DNA of 62,036 bases from Candidatus Methylomirabilis tolerans (GTDB lineage: Bacteria > Methylomirabilota > Methylomirabilia > Methylomirabilales > Methylomirabilaceae), in the NCBI GenBank assembly GCA_019912425.1, contig JAIOIU010000136.1, forward strand, positions 1 to 62,036, written 5' to 3'. Positions 13,564-53,839 of this stretch are shown here, in pieces. The position numbers and the translations under genes were made by a program. Numbering within the stretch: position 1 is the stretch's first letter; each line of letters begins with the position of its first letter. The notes below the pieces were generated by a model. It made no database searches. It was not told the origin of the DNA and saw nothing but the letters and a program-made list of their open reading frames with translations.

Positions 13564-13590
13564 CACGTAACTCCTCAGCTCAGGTAGAAA

Positions 13591-13654
13591 GGCTACAGGC
13601 TGTTAGGCTGTAGGAACGCGCTAACAGCCTAATCCCCTACAACCTACAGTCTAC
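13591..13654. repeat. Inverted word array (GGCTGTAGG family) between pilS and pilR
   Basis: Left arm 13591-13614 reads as variants of GGCTACA / GGCTGTTA / GGCTGTAGG. Right arm 13621-13654 has CTAACAGCC / CTACAACC / CTACAGTCT, the reverse complements in kind. The centre is six bases. The array abuts the pilS stop codon. Confidence 0.65.
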
Positions 13655-47226: not shown

Positions 47227-48540
47227 TCACTCCATACCTCGGTACGACCAGGCTAGAAGCTCGACGGGATGCACGACCCGGATCTGAAGTCCCCGCTCCT
47301 TGAGGCCCTTCTCGATCTGGAGTGAGCAGCCAGGATTACCGCTGACCACTACCTCAACCCCCGTCTCTTTGATCCGCTCGATCTTTCGATCCAGCAACTG
47401 CTGAGCCGCGTCGGGATGCAAGAGGTTATAGATTCCCGCGCTGCCGCAGCAGAAGTCGGATTCTTTCAGCTCGACGAACCGGAGACCGGGGATCTGTTTC
47501 AGGAGTGCCCTTGGCTCCTGCCGAATCTTCTGGCCGTGCGCTAAGTGGCCGGCGTCGTGATAGGTGACGGTCAGGTTCAGCGGCTGGAGTTGACCGTATA
47601 GCGGGAGCCCAGCCAGCAACTCTGAGACATCCCGCACCTTCTTACTAAAGACCTCCGCTCGCTTGGCGTAGGTTGGGTCAGTTTGGAACAGCTCCCAATA
47701 CTCCTTCATGGCCGAGCCGCACCCGGCAGCGTTCACGACGATGTAATCAACGTTGGCCGACTCGAAACAGTCGATAATCCGCCTTGCCTTTATCTTTCCC
47801 TGCTCTCGCTCCCCCTCATGAACCAGGAGCGAGCCGCAGCAGCTTTGATCTTTCGGCGCGATCACCTCGTAGCCGTTCTCGCTCAGGACCCGGACCGTGG
47901 CGGCATTCACGTGGGCAAAGAAGAACCGTTGGACGCAGCCGAGCAGGAGCCCAACCCGCCAACGCCTCTGACCTTTGGCTGGCGTGACCTCGGGGAGCAC
48001 GTACAGACGAGGGTCCGGGATGGAAGGAAGAAGAGCCTCCATCCGGCCCAGACGACCAAAGAAGCTCAAGAGTCCTGAAGCCCGGATGAGCCGCTGCAGG
48101 CCCGACCTCTGATACAACCGCAGGAGGCTGGTGAGCGTCCGTAGGCGACCGAGATCGGTGAAGGTGCGCAGGATGACATCGCGGAAACGCCGCTCGGCGG
48201 CGGGGTGCTGGTAGCGCCGCCCGACCTGGCCCCTGGCCGTTTCCATCAGGGAGCCAAACTTCACGCCCGAAGGGCAGGCCGTCTCGCAGGCCCGGCAAAG
48301 GAGGCAGAGGTCCATGTGCTTGACGAAGCTGTCGGAGATGCCGATCTTCCCTTCCGAAGCAGTCCTGATGAGGGAAAGGCGACCGCGTGGGCTATCCATC
48401 TCGTTGCCGAGGACGAGGTAGGTGGGACAGGTGGGAAGGCAGAACCCGCAGTGGATGCAGTCGAGATACAGTTTCGGGTCAGGCGGATCGATCCGGTCGA
48501 AGGCGCCTGCACTGACCTTCTCTTGCGGTTGGATCATCAT
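47227..48540 (-). CDS. Fe-S oxidoreductase, glycolate oxidase subunit GlcF-like
   Basis: A 438-residue protein with two [4Fe-4S] binding motifs near the N-terminus, CIHCGFCLPTCPTY and CLLCRACETACPSG, and two CCG (cysteine-rich) domains. The first includes CCGSLLVHEGE and AAGCGSAMKEYW; the second has YHDAGHLAHG and SDFCCGSAGIYNLLHP. That is the GlcF / HdrD-like layout that passes electrons from glycolate or lactate oxidases to quinones. No glcD or glcE neighbour is present. Start chosen at the ATG at 48540; the longer frame (48699) is formed by repeats. It sits tail to tail with the CoA-transferase gene. Confidence 0.88.
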   Translation of the reverse strand: MMIQPQEKVSAGAFDRIDPPDPKLYLDCIHCGFCLPTCPTYLVLGNEMDSPRGRLSLIRTASEGKIGISDSFVKHMDLCLLCRACETACPSGVKFGSLMETARGQVGRRYQHPAAERRFRDVILRTFTDLGRLRTLTSLLRLYQRSGLQRLIRASGLLSFFGRLGRMEALLPSIPDPRLYVLPEVTPAKGQRRWRVGLLLGCVQRFFFAHVNAATVRVLSENGYEVIAPKDQSCCGSLLVHEGEREQGKIKARRIIDCFESANVDYIVVNAAGCGSAMKEYWELFQTDPTYAKRAEVFSKKVRDVSELLAGLPLYGQLQPLNLTVTYHDAGHLAHGQKIRQEPRALLKQIPGLRFVELKESDFCCGSAGIYNLLHPDAAQQLLDRKIERIKETGVEVVVSGNPGCSLQIEKGLKERGLQIRVVHPVELLAWSYRGME

Positions 48541-48598
48541 CTGTTCAATAGATTTCGCCTCTTGCAGTATATTATTACTCAGAGCATAAAATAGCTTG

Positions 48599-48744: not shown

Positions 48745-49497
48745 TCAGTTGTCAGCCTCGCCGACGTAGGCTTCGTGCAGCTTCACCGGCTCGGCGCGAA
48801 CCTTTCTCAGCCGTAAGTTAAGCAGTTCTACAACGATCGAGAACGCCATCGCAAAGTAGATGTACCCTTTGGGAATATGCTGATGCAGGCCCTCGACGAT
48901 GAGGGTAAAGCCGATGAGCAGGAGAAAACTCAACGCCAGCATTTTAATGGTGGGATGGCGATCCACAAAACCGGCGATTGGCCCGGCGGACACGATCATC
49001 ACTCCTGCCGCAATGATGACGGCGGCGATCATGATCGCCAGTTGGTCAACCATGCCGACGGCGGTGATCACCGAATCGAGAGAAAAGATGACGTCCAGCA
49101 GGAGGATCTGCACAATGACGCCGGCAAACGAGGGACCGACGTGGGCTGAGGCATGTCCCTCGGCGCCTTCCAGTTTTTGGTGAATTTCATGCGTGCTTTT
49201 TCCCAGCAAAAACAGGCCGCCGAGGATGAGGATGATGTCGCGCCCGGATATCTCATACGTGAGCACAGAGAACAGCGGTTCGGTGAGGCTGATGATCCAT
49301 GAGAGCGAGAGCAGAAGCAGGACGCGCGAGACGATTGCCAATCCCAGGCCTAGAGTGCGCGCCCGGCCCTGCTCATGAGCAGGAAGTTTTCCGGCCAGAA
49401 TCGAAATGAAGATGACGTTGTCAACGCCGAGAACGAGTTCAAGCACGACGAGCGTAGTAAATGCGATCCATGCTTGGGGATCAGCTAACCAATCCAT
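48745..49497 (-). CDS. TerC family integral membrane protein
   Basis: A 250-residue membrane protein. The family pattern is evident as LELVLGVDNVIFISILAGKLP near residue 18, LGLGLAIVSRVLLLLSLSW, GRDIILILGGLFLLGKSTHE and LLDVIFSLDSVITAVGMVD near residue 138, with conserved aspartates inside helices. TerC/Alx-type proteins are manganese exporters or support co-translational metal loading. Start chosen at the ATG at 49497, where the conserved MDWLADPQAWIAF begins. It follows the cytochrome c gene by 123 bases in the same direction. Confidence 0.92.
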   Translation of the reverse strand: MDWLADPQAWIAFTTLVVLELVLGVDNVIFISILAGKLPAHEQGRARTLGLGLAIVSRVLLLLSLSWIISLTEPLFSVLTYEISGRDIILILGGLFLLGKSTHEIHQKLEGAEGHASAHVGPSFAGVIVQILLLDVIFSLDSVITAVGMVDQLAIMIAAVIIAAGVMIVSAGPIAGFVDRHPTIKMLALSFLLLIGFTLIVEGLHQHIPKGYIYFAMAFSIVVELLNLRLRKVRAEPVKLHEAYVGEADN

Positions 49498-49620
49498 ATG
49501 TGAATTCTCCGACTGTTTGGCGCCCGCCTTCGGAGCGGTGCCGCCTGCCGACACTGGTCTCCACCGTTTGGTTGGGTATCGTTGCTCCGGCAGGTTGGAG
49601 TCGACTGCGCGGAATGCGCA

Positions 49621-50043
49621 CTACTCCTGCTGAATCGAACGCAAATAGTCAGTGAGGGCTCGTGCGTGCAGAAGGGAGATGTAGCCAGGATAGCCTTCGG
49701 GCCGGTGCTCGCTCTCGAACACCGCCCCCCAGACGGGCATCTCCCTGGTGCCATGCTCGGCTACTGCGAGCCTGCCGTCGATGATGTGCATCACATAGGC
49801 CTCATCAAATCGCCCATCGTGGCGCTTTGCGATCAGCCGAAGGTCGGACGGGAACCGCCGCAGGGATGCTGCCAACGAACCGTTGCCGTCCCCGGACTCG
49901 CCGTGACACGAGGCGCAGTACCGGCGATAGAGGGCCTGCCCGGTAGGCGGCTCCGAAGCGCTACCGCACGAGACGAGAATCAGACTGACAGCGAACGCGA
50001 GGACAGCGATTCCCTGAGTGATTCTAGTGGGCCCCCCAATCAT
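49621..50043 (-). CDS. Cytochrome c lipoprotein, class I
   Basis: A 140-residue mono-heme cytochrome. The signal peptide ends in lipobox LVSC, so it is anchored to a membrane. The heme site is CASCH in YRRYCASCHGESGDGNG near residue 42, and the distal methionine is in GTREMPVWGAVFE near residue 103. It is a typical small electron-transfer or oxidase-associated cytochrome. The ATG at 50043 is preferred over a longer frame to 50082. It has a good promoter 75 bases upstream in repeat copy 1, which is duplicated before the next gene upstream. The redox context includes the thioredoxin/CcdA-type protein. Confidence 0.9.
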   Translation of the reverse strand: MIGGPTRITQGIAVLAFAVSLILVSCGSASEPPTGQALYRRYCASCHGESGDGNGSLAASLRRFPSDLRLIAKRHDGRFDEAYVMHIIDGRLAVAEHGTREMPVWGAVFESEHRPEGYPGYISLLHARALTDYLRSIQQE

Positions 50044-50117
50044 TTCGAGCCTTCCTGATATCGTAGCCGTCCTTGAGTCCATGAAGCAGCTCCCCGCTGC
50101 CCGATACGCGATTCCAT

Positions 50118-50162
50118 CTGTTGATTGTCGTCACTATAATCTTACCCTCTGATCGGGTCAAG
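50118..50162 (-). promoter_or_regulatory. 45-bp promoter module, copy 1 (cytochrome c gene)
   Basis: On the minus strand TTGACC (50161-50156), 17-base spacer CGATCAGAGGGTAAGAT, TATAGT (50138-50133), 90 bases before the cytochrome c ATG. The 45-base sequence matches 51617-51661 at 43 of 45 positions. Confidence 0.85.
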
Positions 50163-50216
50163 GTTTCATGTAGCTTCAGGAATAGCAATAACCGCGAGGC
50201 TACGGGGTAGATTGGG

Positions 50217-51536
50217 TCAGGCGCCGGCGCCGCGATCCGGCCACAGCCGGGCGACGAGCGCGGTCAGCATAATCGCCGCGGCCAAAAGCAATACCGCCAC
50301 CAGTCCGTTGCTCAGCAGGACCGGGGCGACCAGCAGGAGGATCCCTAGACCCAGCATCATGAGACCCGAGAGGAGTTTCAGCGCCCGGCCCTCGCGCACG
50401 GAAAGCTTGCGCGTGCCGAGCGTAAAGACACACACTGCCGTGACAGCGGCGAGCGGTAGCACGTAGATGAGGTTGTACAGGGCAAGATAGAGGTAATACG
50501 TCGTTATCGGCAACGGCGCAAGCGTCAGCAGACGCGTGAAGATCATAGGAAAGCCGGCGGTACAAAGCAGCTCATAGGCATTTGCTGTAAGCGCCAGCAT
50601 CACCGTGCCGACAAGCATCACGGCGAGATTTTGCGCGCCGACGAGCCCGCGCATGCGTGCAAACAGGCCTGGCTGGGCGCGCTCGGGAATCGACAGCGTG
50701 ACGCCGCGCTTAAACCAGAAGAAGTCCTTGATGTTGATCACCGCCATAGCCACTGCGAGCGCTCCCGCGATCAGCGTCACCAGCCGAAGCTCGCCGGCGA
50801 CGAGAAATACGTTGAGCCAGGCGGCCATGAAGATGAAATAGACCAGCCCCGAGCACAGCACGAACACGCCGCCGACAAGTGCCATGCGGCGGCGGCTGGC
50901 CGCATGCGCCATGAGGGAGAGCAGGAACAGCAGCACGAAGAACGCGCACGGATTGAAGGCGTCCAGGCCGGCAAGCGTCACCGTCGCGAGCGGCAGCGAC
51001 CACGCGCGCAGGTCGATGGCACCGAGCAGCGGCAGCGTAACGCTCGTGACAGGCGGCGCGGCCGCCGCTCCACCGCTTTCGAGTCGCGCGCGGCAGGCAA
51101 GTAACCGTCTGCGAAGCATCGCCCCAGTCGTGCCGGCCGAGTCGTAGCCGACGTGCATCTCCCCGCAGAAGAGAAATCCCGGTACCGACCTGGCGTCCTC
51201 GCCAAGCATTCCCGCCAGCTTCATGTAGAGGCGCGCATTCTCTACGCTGGCGCTGACCTCAGCGCTGTGCACTCGCAACCACGGGAACTCCTTTGGGAGG
51301 TTCTCAACAAACGGATGCGCTTCGACGCAATGCGGGCACTGGCGCGACCAGAAGAAATAGAACTCGACCTGCCACTCGCCGGAATCGGCTTGGTGGTACC
51401 AGATCGAGTCGTCCGACGTACCACCGGCGGCATCCGTCAGCAGGAACAAACAGAGCAAAAGCGCCGCAATAAAACCCCAGCGATGGGAGCTGGTGGTCAC
51501 AGATATCCTATGGCGGTCCCAGTCACTGCAACCCAT
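50217..51536 (-). CDS. Thioredoxin-like plus CcdA/DsbD-type transmembrane thiol-disulfide protein
   Basis: A 439-residue fusion. A signal peptide (WGFIAALLLCLFLLTDAAGG) leads to a periplasmic thioredoxin-fold domain, residues about 45-150, with redox motif CPHC in FFWSRQCPHCVEAHPFVENL and SVPGFLFCGE. Residues 185-439 form about seven helices with the two CcdA/DsbD cysteines: DAFNPCAFFVLLFLLSL in the first helix and ELLCTAGFPM in the fourth. Such proteins pass electrons from cytoplasmic thioredoxin to the periplasm for cytochrome c maturation or disulfide repair. Its promoter duplicates that of the neighbouring cytochrome c gene, supporting a shared role. Confidence 0.88.
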   Translation of the reverse strand: MGCSDWDRHRISVTTSSHRWGFIAALLLCLFLLTDAAGGTSDDSIWYHQADSGEWQVEFYFFWSRQCPHCVEAHPFVENLPKEFPWLRVHSAEVSASVENARLYMKLAGMLGEDARSVPGFLFCGEMHVGYDSAGTTGAMLRRRLLACRARLESGGAAAAPPVTSVTLPLLGAIDLRAWSLPLATVTLAGLDAFNPCAFFVLLFLLSLMAHAASRRRMALVGGVFVLCSGLVYFIFMAAWLNVFLVAGELRLVTLIAGALAVAMAVINIKDFFWFKRGVTLSIPERAQPGLFARMRGLVGAQNLAVMLVGTVMLALTANAYELLCTAGFPMIFTRLLTLAPLPITTYYLYLALYNLIYVLPLAAVTAVCVFTLGTRKLSVREGRALKLLSGLMMLGLGILLLVAPVLLSNGLVAVLLLAAAIMLTALVARLWPDRGAGA

Positions 51537-51616
51537 TCAGTCGCCACGCCTGACGTCACGATTGAGCCGCTGAGCCGGCCGGCGAAGCACGCTCGCGAAG
51601 GTCGGTCTCAAATAGT

Positions 51617-51661
51617 CTGTTGATTGTTGTCACTATAATCTCACCCTCTGATCGGGTCAAG
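51617..51661 (-). promoter_or_regulatory. 45-bp promoter module, copy 2 (thioredoxin/CcdA-type gene)
   Basis: On the minus strand TTGACC (51660-51655), 17-base spacer CGATCAGAGGGTGAGAT, TATAGT (51637-51632), about 96 bases before the ATG at 51536. It differs from copy 1 (50118-50162) at two positions. The flanks outside the 45 bases are unrelated. Confidence 0.85.
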
Positions 51662-51793
51662 CATGCATACGGCATCTTTTTTGCTCTGGCGCTTTTTAGC
51701 CGCCGACCGTATACTACAACTTAATTCAATGGTTATGCGGGACGTTGGTAACAACCCGCTCACCTTGGCATCTGCCCTGTGAACTCTAGGTTG

Positions 51794-51820
51794 CCCTTCG
51801 ACAAGCTCAAGGCGAACGGT
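51794..51820. repeat. TTCGACAAGCTCA-type dispersed repeat
   Basis: CCCTTCGACAAGCTCAAGG followed by CGAACGGT matches a short repeat found, from memory, in many bacterial genomes. It is a single, slightly degenerate copy in the hemDE upstream region. Confidence 0.5.
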
Positions 51821-51898
51821 CGCGACTTAGGAAACGTTGATGTTTCCCATTCGGATCGAGCCTGTCAAAATATGATCAAGGGAGAGAAACCTTACGCC

Positions 51899-53839
51899 AT
51901 GAACCATGTTGCTGCTTCCCGGCTTAGCGACTTGACCGGCCTCAAAGTCATTTCCTTTGAGAGTCGCCTGGCTGGCGCGATGGCTGACCTGATCAGTCGC
52001 CAAGGGGGGACCCCGATCTGCGCGCCGGCTGTTCAAGAGATTCCGCTTGCAGAAAACCGAGAAGCGTTAGAGTTCGCAAGAGAGTTATTGGCCGGGCGGA
52101 TTGACCTGGTCATACTGCTGACCGGCGTGGGTATCCGCGCCCTGCTTGCCGCAGTTGAAGACACCTACCCGCGCGCAGAGATTCTTACAGCTCTGAGCCG
52201 AATCCCGACCATTGTCCGCGGTCTCAAGCCTCAGGTGGTGTTACGCGAGTTGGGCGTCCCGATTACGCTGGCCGTCCCGGACCCGAATACCTGGCGTGAA
52301 ATTCTAAGCGCTGTCGATGATGCCGCAATCCCCCTGCAGGGTCGGCGGGTGGCAGTACAGGAGTACGGACGGAGTAACCCGGAGCTGATTGCAGGATTAG
52401 AAACACGAGGGGCCGTCGTGATGCGGGTCTCCGTCTACCGATGGGCATTGCCGGAGGACTGCGGTCCTTTGCGGCGCGCCATCAAGGCCATCATTGAGCG
52501 GCAGGTCGATCTGGTCCTCTTTACTACCGCGGTACAGGTGGATCATCTGCTGCAGGTTGCTGCGGAGGAGGGTCTGGAAGAGCCGCTGCGAGCAGGATTG
52601 AGAGATACGGTCGTCGCGTCGATTGGCCCTACGTGCAGCGGCGCCCTGCGTGAGCATGGCCTGGTTGTGGATCTGGAACCGGAACATCCGAAGATGGGGT
52701 ATCTCGTCCAGACTGCTGCGCGCCATGCGCAAGTGCTGCGACGGATCAAACAGGTCAGATCGATACAAGGCGTAGGGCGTGATGCTCAAGTGGACCGAGG
52801 CGCAGCACTGTTGCAGGAGAGTCCCTTCCTGAAGGCCTGCCGCCTGGAGCCGACTCCCTATACGCCGATCTGGATCATGCGGCAAGCCGGCCGCTACATG
52901 CTGGAGTACCGGGAGATTCGGGGTAAACTCTCATTTCTGGAGCTGTGTCACCGGCCGGATCTGGCGGCTGAGGTGACGGTGACGGCTGCCCAACGACTGG
53001 GGGTGGATGCGGCGATCATCTTCGGGGACATCTTGCTGGTAGTACAACCGATGGGCGTTGGCCTCGAGTTCACCAAGGGCGGTGGCCCGGTGATCCACAA
53101 CCCGGTGAGATCCGGGGCTGACCTGAAGAGGCTGCAGCCGGTCGATGTGCAGGAATCGCTCTCATTTGTCTTTGACGCGGTGCGTCTGGCGCGGGCGACT
53201 CTTCCACCGAACATTCCCCTCATCGGGTTCGCCGGGGCGCCGTTTACCCTGGCCTCATATCTGATCGAGGGTCGCGGATCGCGTCAGTATCAACATACCA
53301 AGGCGCTCATGTACCGCGATCCCTGGGCCTGGCACGCGCTGATGGAGCGGCTGGCGGATATCGTATCGGGCTACCTGAACGGCCAGATCGCTGCCGGCGC
53401 CCAGGTCGTGCAATTATTCGATAGTTGGGTCGGCTGTCTCAGCCCGGATGATTACCGCGAGTTTGTTCTGCCCCATACGAAGCGCGCAATCGCTGCCCTC
53501 ACGCCGGGCGTACCGGTCATTCACTTTGGGACCGATACTGCCACACTGCTCTCATTGATGCGGGAGGCCGGCGGGAATGTGATCGGACTGGATTGGCGAG
53601 TGGATTTAGGCGAAACCTGGTCGCGTCTCGGGCATGATGTCGGAGTACAGGGCAACCTGGACCCGATGGTGCTCCTCGCCGAGCTTGGCGAGATTCGCCG
53701 TCAGGCCGGCCGGATTCTTGAGCGTGCTGCGAAACGCCCAGGCCACATCTTTAATCTTGGTCACGGGGTGTTGCCGCAAACCCCTGTGGACCACCTGCGC
53801 GCGCTCATCGATTACGTTCACGAATCGACGGCGAGATGA
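51899..53839 (+). CDS. hemDE: Fused uroporphyrinogen-III synthase and uroporphyrinogen decarboxylase
   Basis: About 646 residues in one protein. Residues 1-275 are HemD: VISFESRLAGAMADLISRQGG, ILLTGVGIRALLA, VQEYGRSNPELIAGLETRGA, FTTAVQVDHLLQ and ASIGPTCSGALREHGL. Residues about 300-646 are HemE: TPIWIMRQAGRYMLEYREIR with the catalytic arginine region, IIFGDILLVVQPMGVGLEF, GFAGAPFTLASYLIEG, DSWVGCLSP and HFGTDTATLL. The two steps close hydroxymethylbilane and then decarboxylate the product. I prefer the ATG at 51899. AGGGAGAG is 12 bases upstream, and an earlier ATG at 51872 is possible. hemH follows after one base and hemG after that. Confidence 0.92.
   Translation: MNHVAASRLSDLTGLKVISFESRLAGAMADLISRQGGTPICAPAVQEIPLAENREALEFARELLAGRIDLVILLTGVGIRALLAAVEDTYPRAEILTALSRIPTIVRGLKPQVVLRELGVPITLAVPDPNTWREILSAVDDAAIPLQGRRVAVQEYGRSNPELIAGLETRGAVVMRVSVYRWALPEDCGPLRRAIKAIIERQVDLVLFTTAVQVDHLLQVAAEEGLEEPLRAGLRDTVVASIGPTCSGALREHGLVVDLEPEHPKMGYLVQTAARHAQVLRRIKQVRSIQGVGRDAQVDRGAALLQESPFLKACRLEPTPYTPIWIMRQAGRYMLEYREIRGKLSFLELCHRPDLAAEVTVTAAQRLGVDAAIIFGDILLVVQPMGVGLEFTKGGGPVIHNPVRSGADLKRLQPVDVQESLSFVFDAVRLARATLPPNIPLIGFAGAPFTLASYLIEGRGSRQYQHTKALMYRDPWAWHALMERLADIVSGYLNGQIAAGAQVVQLFDSWVGCLSPDDYREFVLPHTKRAIAALTPGVPVIHFGTDTATLLSLMREAGGNVIGLDWRVDLGETWSRLGHDVGVQGNLDPMVLLAELGEIRRQAGRILERAAKRPGHIFNLGHGVLPQTPVDHLRALIDYVHESTAR

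What the first reader, a model, noticed from the sequence alone, without database searches (positions are those of the whole stretch)
50118..51661. Duplicated 45-bp promoter driving cytochrome c and a thioredoxin/CcdA-type gene
Seen: copies at 50118-50162 and 51617-51661 match at 43 of 45 bases; each contains TTGACC-N17-TATAGT on the minus strand and lies 75-81 bases before a start codon, while flanks differ. The spacer (CGATCAGAGGGT-AGAT) is nearly identical, more than a promoter needs. Inference: the module was copied so that both redox genes share one control, and the spacer may hold an operator. A short mobile repeat bearing a promoter is the alternative.
Basis: partly seen in the sequence, partly recalled or inferred. 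Interest (0 to 1): 0.55.

Follow-up and report, generated by a model that had tools for sequence, protein, structure and literature searches.

The report
Copied promoter before three redox genes
A short ordinary-looking bacterial promoter, originally placed beside a haem-synthesis gene in Candidatus Methylomirabilis, was found three times in this genome, each time ahead of an electron-transfer gene; this fits the known habit of bacteria to reuse promoters by copying them.

Summary
The repeat is real: 43 of 45 bases match, each copy has TTGACC-N17-TATAGT on the minus strand, and about 1e-13 such pairs are expected by chance. Three copies were found in the own genome, each before a redox gene: a cytochrome c gene, a thioredoxin/CcdA-like gene, and a cytochrome c paralogue on another contig. 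The copy at 51617-51661 is the ancestral one. Its orthologues sit in the hemDE intergenic region of four other species, where they face glcF, terC or the CcdA-like gene. The copy at 50118-50162 matches those loci over only 51-63 bp and is the derived one. The third copy's orthologue survives in G006, where the cytochrome c gene is reduced to its last six codons. The proposed spacer operator is not supported: across species spacer similarity does not follow the downstream gene, and G006's two copies differ at 7 of 17 spacer bases beside 20 identical upstream bases, although the copies within this genome do keep the spacer better than their upstream DNA. A mobile repeat is unlikely. Best reading: a sigma-70-type promoter propagated within the genome, a known kind of event. 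Transcription is untested.

The parts
50118..50162 (-). P1: derived copy of the promoter element, before cytochrome c; -35 TTGACC 50161-50156, -10 TATAGT 50138-50133; model match 50114-50178
51617..51661 (-). P2: ancestral copy, in the hemDE upstream region, before the CcdA-like gene; -35 51660-51655, -10 51637-51632; model match 51611-51679
49621..50043 (-). cytochrome c lipoprotein gene (140 aa; start at ATG 50043, after AGGAAGG)
   Evidence: Pfam Cytochrome_CBB3 1e-08; paralogue alignment at the start; lipobox by inspection
50217..51536 (-). thioredoxin-like plus membrane-helix protein, CcdA/DsbD-like (439 aa)
   Evidence: no Pfam or NCBIfam family at cut-off; weak thioredoxin matches to solved structures, best E 7e-4; CPHC and NPCAF motifs by inspection
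48745..49497 (-). terC; its orthologue faces the ancestral promoter in G006 and G009
   Evidence: Pfam TerC 2e-45
47227..48540 (-). glcF-like iron-sulfur protein gene (start inferred from relatives); its orthologue faces the promoter directly in G001
   Evidence: Pfam CCG/Fer4 on 47227-48558
51896..53839 (+). hemD-hemE fusion gene, divergent neighbour that anchors synteny of P2
   Evidence: Pfam HEM4 and URO-D; match at E up to 1e-100 in 13 of 15 genus genomes, own included

Best explanation
The repeat is a sigma-70-type promoter with about 20 bp of upstream DNA and about 12 bp of transcribed leader. It originated as the leftward promoter of the divergent glcF/hemDE intergenic region of Candidatus Methylomirabilis (P2 is that original). 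A copy of about 60 bp came to lie before a cytochrome c gene, giving P1 and the copy on contig C60, and has been kept as genes were gained and lost around it. Shown: copies found, synteny of P2, gene turnover beside it, invariant -35 box and fixed 17-base spacer in the 8 aligned copies. Inferred: that it is transcribed, that the captures served to express newly placed genes, and the order of events. The three redox genes would share a basal promoter strength, not a demonstrated regulator.
For: Three copies in the own genome and no further match there at E up to 1, with 150 of 238 candidates scored. P2 orthologues lie in the hemDE upstream region of G001, G006, G009 and G013, with homology continuing on the hemDE side only for P2: G001 aligns over 101 bp with P2 but 62 bp with P1. 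The minus-strand gene differs: glcF (G001), terC (G006, G009), CcdA-like (G013, G000). All 8 aligned copies keep TTGACC. In the five orthologues the hexamers are the most invariant part (10 of 12 positions, against 17 of 37 for spacer plus upstream; Fisher p 0.04). The C60 copy precedes a 78%-identical cytochrome c paralogue, and G006 keeps that copy. The third paralogue (G000:C31) has no copy in the 350 bases upstream.
Against: No expression data. Within G000 the spacer is far better kept than the upstream 20 bp (P1/P2: 1 of 17 against 11 of 20 differ; p 0.002), which could mean selection on more than the hexamers. G013's -10 is weak (TATTCT), so that copy may be dead. The donor of P1 is unresolved: P1 matches C60 at 51 and P2 at 48 of 57 columns. 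Nine of 15 genus genomes show no strong copy, so how old the element is within the genus is uncertain.
Confidence: 0.76

Rival explanations
1. A small redox regulon: a transcription factor binds the conserved spacer (dyad ACCC-N7-GGGT) of all three copies, and copying the module put both cytochrome c genes and the CcdA-like gene under it.
For: 3 of 3 own-genome copies found precede redox genes. Spacers of the three copies differ pairwise by 1-2 of 17 bases while upstream 20 bp differ by 7-11. The dyad is intact in all three and in G006-C60 and G009. Cytochrome c maturation plausibly needs a CcdA-type reductant (general knowledge).
Against: Spacer similarity does not follow the gene: G013 before the CcdA-like orthologue differs from P2 at 5 of 17, G009 before terC at 2 of 17. 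In G006 the two copies differ at 7 of 17 spacer bases beside 0 of 20 upstream. The dyad is broken in G001, G006-hem and G013. Spacer not more invariant than upstream in the five orthologues.
Confidence: 0.13
2. A short mobile repeat (MITE-like or REP-like) that happens to carry a promoter.
For: Copies lie at unrelated places with unrelated outer flanks.
Against: 1-3 copies per genome in 6 of 15 genus genomes at E up to 1e-13, and none at that level in 85 genomes outside the genus. No inverted repeats of 8 or more bases in or around four copies examined (P1, P2, G000-C60, G006-C60). A MITE-like family of the same genus looks quite different: 177 bp, inverted ends, 49 matches in G009.
Confidence: 0.06
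3. Simple segmental duplication of a gene with its promoter, followed by replacement of one gene, with no selection for promoter reuse.
For: P1 and C60 both precede cytochrome c paralogues and are the closest G000 pair (51 of 57 columns, against 48 for the other two pairs).
Against: Does not explain P2, which precedes an unrelated gene and is syntenic in other species; the two cytochrome c leaders show no clear similarity beyond about 12 bases past the -10 box.
Confidence: 0.05

Closest known systems
Intragenomic promoter propagation / 'mobile promoters' (Matus-Garcia, Nijveen and van Passel 2012; not held, content recalled; seen here only in reference lists and citing passages)
   Same: Short promoter-sized DNA repeated within one genome before non-homologous genes, few copies.
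   Different: Here the ancestral locus can be named, and the downstream gene has turned over at the same promoter across species.
Promoter copying to activate new or inactive genes (as described in the introduction of PMC5906472, passages read)
   Same: An existing promoter is copied upstream of a gene whose expression is needed.
   Different: Not shown experimentally here; no transposable element recognised at the copies in this genome.
MITEs
   Same: Short non-coding repeats in intergenic regions.
   Different: No inverted repeats of 8 or more bases in the four copies examined, one to three copies per genome.

Membership tests
Intragenomic promoter propagation | Promoter-sized repeat before non-homologous genes in one genome | tested here: met
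   P1 before cytochrome c, P2 before the CcdA-like gene, third before a cytochrome c paralogue
Intragenomic promoter propagation | Homology confined to the upstream region, flanks unrelated | tested here: met
   P1 against P2: outside offsets -10 to +49 from the -35 box, 10-base windows match at only 1-4 of 10
Intragenomic promoter propagation | Copies are active promoters | not testable with these tools
   Only consensus matches
MITE or REP element | Terminal inverted repeats or palindromic unit | tested here: not met
   No inverted repeat of 8 or more bases in 4 of 4 copies examined with flanks; only the short ACCC-N7-GGGT dyad, intact in 5 of 8 copies
MITE or REP element | Dispersed in many copies | tested here: not met
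   1-3 copies in each of 6 of 15 genus genomes
Regulon operator in the spacer | Spacer conserved beyond neighbouring non-promoter bases | tested here: inconclusive
   Across species not met: 8 of 17 invariant against 9 of 20 upstream in five orthologues, and opposite in G006 (7 of 17 against 0 of 20 differ). Among the G000 copies met for P1/P2 (p 0.002) and P1/C60 (p 0.048), not P2/C60 (p 0.14)

The most novel reading that the evidence does not exclude
In this lineage the 45-bp core, including the spacer, became a lineage-specific operator-promoter that ties two cytochrome c genes and a CcdA-like gene into one small redox circuit recruited from a haem-biosynthesis intergenic region, so that haem supply and cytochrome maturation respond together.
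Probability: 0.1. Interest if true: 0.45.

Novelty: new member of a known kind. Interest (0 to 1): 0.22.

Why it matters
It is a clean worked example, in an uncultured methane-oxidising genus, of a promoter that stays put while its gene is replaced, and that is also copied to serve new genes. If the shared control were real, it would give a handle on redox regulation in these methanotrophs (recalled to make their own oxygen from nitrite).

Tried and rejected
Operator dyad ACCC-N7-GGGT: rejected as a feature conserved across species. Architecture search TTGACC-N(3-8)-GGG-N(1-6)-TATANT in 10 genomes found, in the genus, only six copies already known (it missed the two divergent ones), and one match of the reversed control in G001; G097, a genome labelled only 'same domain', gave three matches, two of them copies of a look-alike of 27 bases with a spacer of 15. 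The look-alikes also reached E 0.006 with the model, where about 0.6 such matches are expected over 99 genomes, and their downstream DNA is shared as well, so I treat them as unrelated. ECF-sigma control of the C60 copy was considered because an ECF-type sigma gene and a zf-HC2 protein gene lie upstream; the hexamers are sigma-70-type, so it was not pursued. Structure prediction of the CcdA-like protein failed (mean pLDDT 39), so no fold search was made. Three paper searches were read as listings only; Methylomirabilis with 'transcription start site' and with 'miniature inverted-repeat' returned no papers. The 2012 promoter-propagation paper and three related ones were not held.

Full report
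Observation. Both carry TTGACC-N17-TATAGT on the minus strand; the scan finds one other promoter-like site in 49400-52000. Distances of 75 and 81 bases to the starts at 50043 and 51536 are right.

Source. The same pair occurs in contig NSJM01000070.1, titled Candidatus Methylomirabilis sp.; its length, 15019, equals that of contig C24 of G060, listed as the same species. G060 has all three copies. The locus carrying terC in G060 is cut off inside the end of the cytochrome c gene, with 169 of 169 bases equal to the window up to that point, so the absence of the window-type cytochrome c gene from G060 is probably an assembly break.

Copy number. A pattern search with up to 3 mismatches and a 72-position sequence model (R1) both give three copies in the own genome (2.65 Mb in 167 contigs). 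In 15 genus genomes the model gives 11 matches at E up to 8e-14 (G000 3, G060 3, G006 2, and G001, G009, G013 one each); the next is at 0.011, and seven such weak matches (0.011-0.22) are listed. In 99 relatives (14 of the genus, 85 outside) there is no strong match outside the genus; one outside genome (G097) has two at about 0.006. Weak copies may be missed: one search used stricter filters, and in most genomes both calls scored a capped number of candidates. A stricter pattern found nothing in 46 genomes outside the genus.

The third copy lies at G000:C60:13057-13098; its -10 box ends 120 bases before the start of a cytochrome c gene 78% identical to the window's. A third paralogue, on C31, 79% identical, and its relatives in four other species and in G060 have no copy in the 350 bases upstream that were checked (best 15-17 of 32 positions).

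Which copy is original. P2 (51617-51661) has orthologues between hemDE and its leftward neighbour in G001, G006, G009 and G013 (24-31 of 32 positions). Homology runs past P2 toward hemDE (101 bp with G001, 108 bp with G009, 102 bp with G006), while P1 matches the same loci over only 62, 51 and 63 bp. The leftward gene is glcF in G001, terC in G006 and G009, the CcdA-like gene in G013 and in the window. The other nine genus genomes have no strong copy; five of them are only 80-83% complete, and two of the nine (G007, G011) gave no hemDE match at 1e-100. Of the seven hemDE regions fetched from them, none holds a match above 20 of 32 positions; in the three of these that I aligned to the window (G003, G004, G010), what aligns between glcF and hemDE is a hemDE-proximal part beyond the promoter, apart from short weak matches. 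terC is found in 4 of 15 genomes and the CcdA-like gene in 3 of 15. So, where the promoter is present, it stays while genes beside it change.

At the C60-type locus, G006 keeps the promoter but the cytochrome c gene is gone except for its last six codons and stop, identical to the G000 gene's end and starting 22 bases after the -10 box.

Is there an operator? Against it: in five orthologues the hexamers are invariant at 10 of 12 positions, the spacer at 8 of 17, the upstream 20 bp at 9 of 20. The spacer before the CcdA-like orthologue in G013 differs from P2 at 5 of 17 bases, that before terC in G009 at 2 of 17. The two G006 copies differ at 7 of 17 spacer bases but 0 of 20 upstream (p 0.002). 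For it: among the three G000 copies the spacer is better kept than the upstream part (1 against 11, 1 against 7, 2 against 7 differences; p 0.002, 0.048, 0.14), and the ACCC-N7-GGGT dyad is intact in 5 of 8 copies. These tests are small and not independent, and no correction for their number was made. I read the G000 similarity mainly as shared descent plus constraint on the promoter core, and leave a lineage-specific operator at about 0.1.

Mobile repeat? Four copies examined with flanks have no inverted repeats of 8 or more bases. A MITE-like family of the genus has inverted ends and many copies, and in G009 one member lies right after the promoter.

The genes. Cytochrome c is supported by Pfam. 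The CcdA-like name is weaker: no Pfam or NCBIfam family at cut-off, weak thioredoxin matches to solved structures (best E 7e-4), and CPHC and NPCAF motifs by inspection; structure prediction failed.

Known kind. Copying of existing promoters to new genes is described in PMC5906472 (passages read), which cites 'Promoter propagation in prokaryotes' (2012; not held, content recalled). This case fits that kind. Whether any copy is transcribed is unknown.

Noticed in passing
L066:7690-7866 (G009:C30:75689-75865); partial match in window 13579-13621: A 177-bp MITE-like repeat with inverted ends ACTACTCAGGT: 49 matches in G009 from 40 of 130 candidates scored, and matches in 9 of 15 genus genomes, some of them, as in G000, only short end pieces. 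In G009 it lies directly after the promoter, between it and terC.
   Followed up: partly
G000:C60:1528-13628 (L068): Island with what look like TolC/MFP/CzcA-type efflux genes, a TerC/Alx-like gene split over two frames, a site-2-protease-like gene, ECF-type sigma and zf-HC2 genes, then the promoter copy and cytochrome c (sigma region 4 and zf-HC2 by Pfam, cytochrome c by its identity to the window's, the other names by inspection). One 1583-bp part is 97% identical to G006.
   Followed up: partly
window 50217-51536: A 439-aa thioredoxin-like/CcdA-like protein with no Pfam family at cut-off, found in 3 of 15 genus genomes and, as more distant matches at E up to 1e-10, in 3 of 85 genomes outside the genus.
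   Followed up: partly
L104 and L105 (G097): Two copies of TTGACCCCCCGAAGGGGGGATTATAGT in a genome labelled only 'same domain', with shared downstream DNA.
   Followed up: partly
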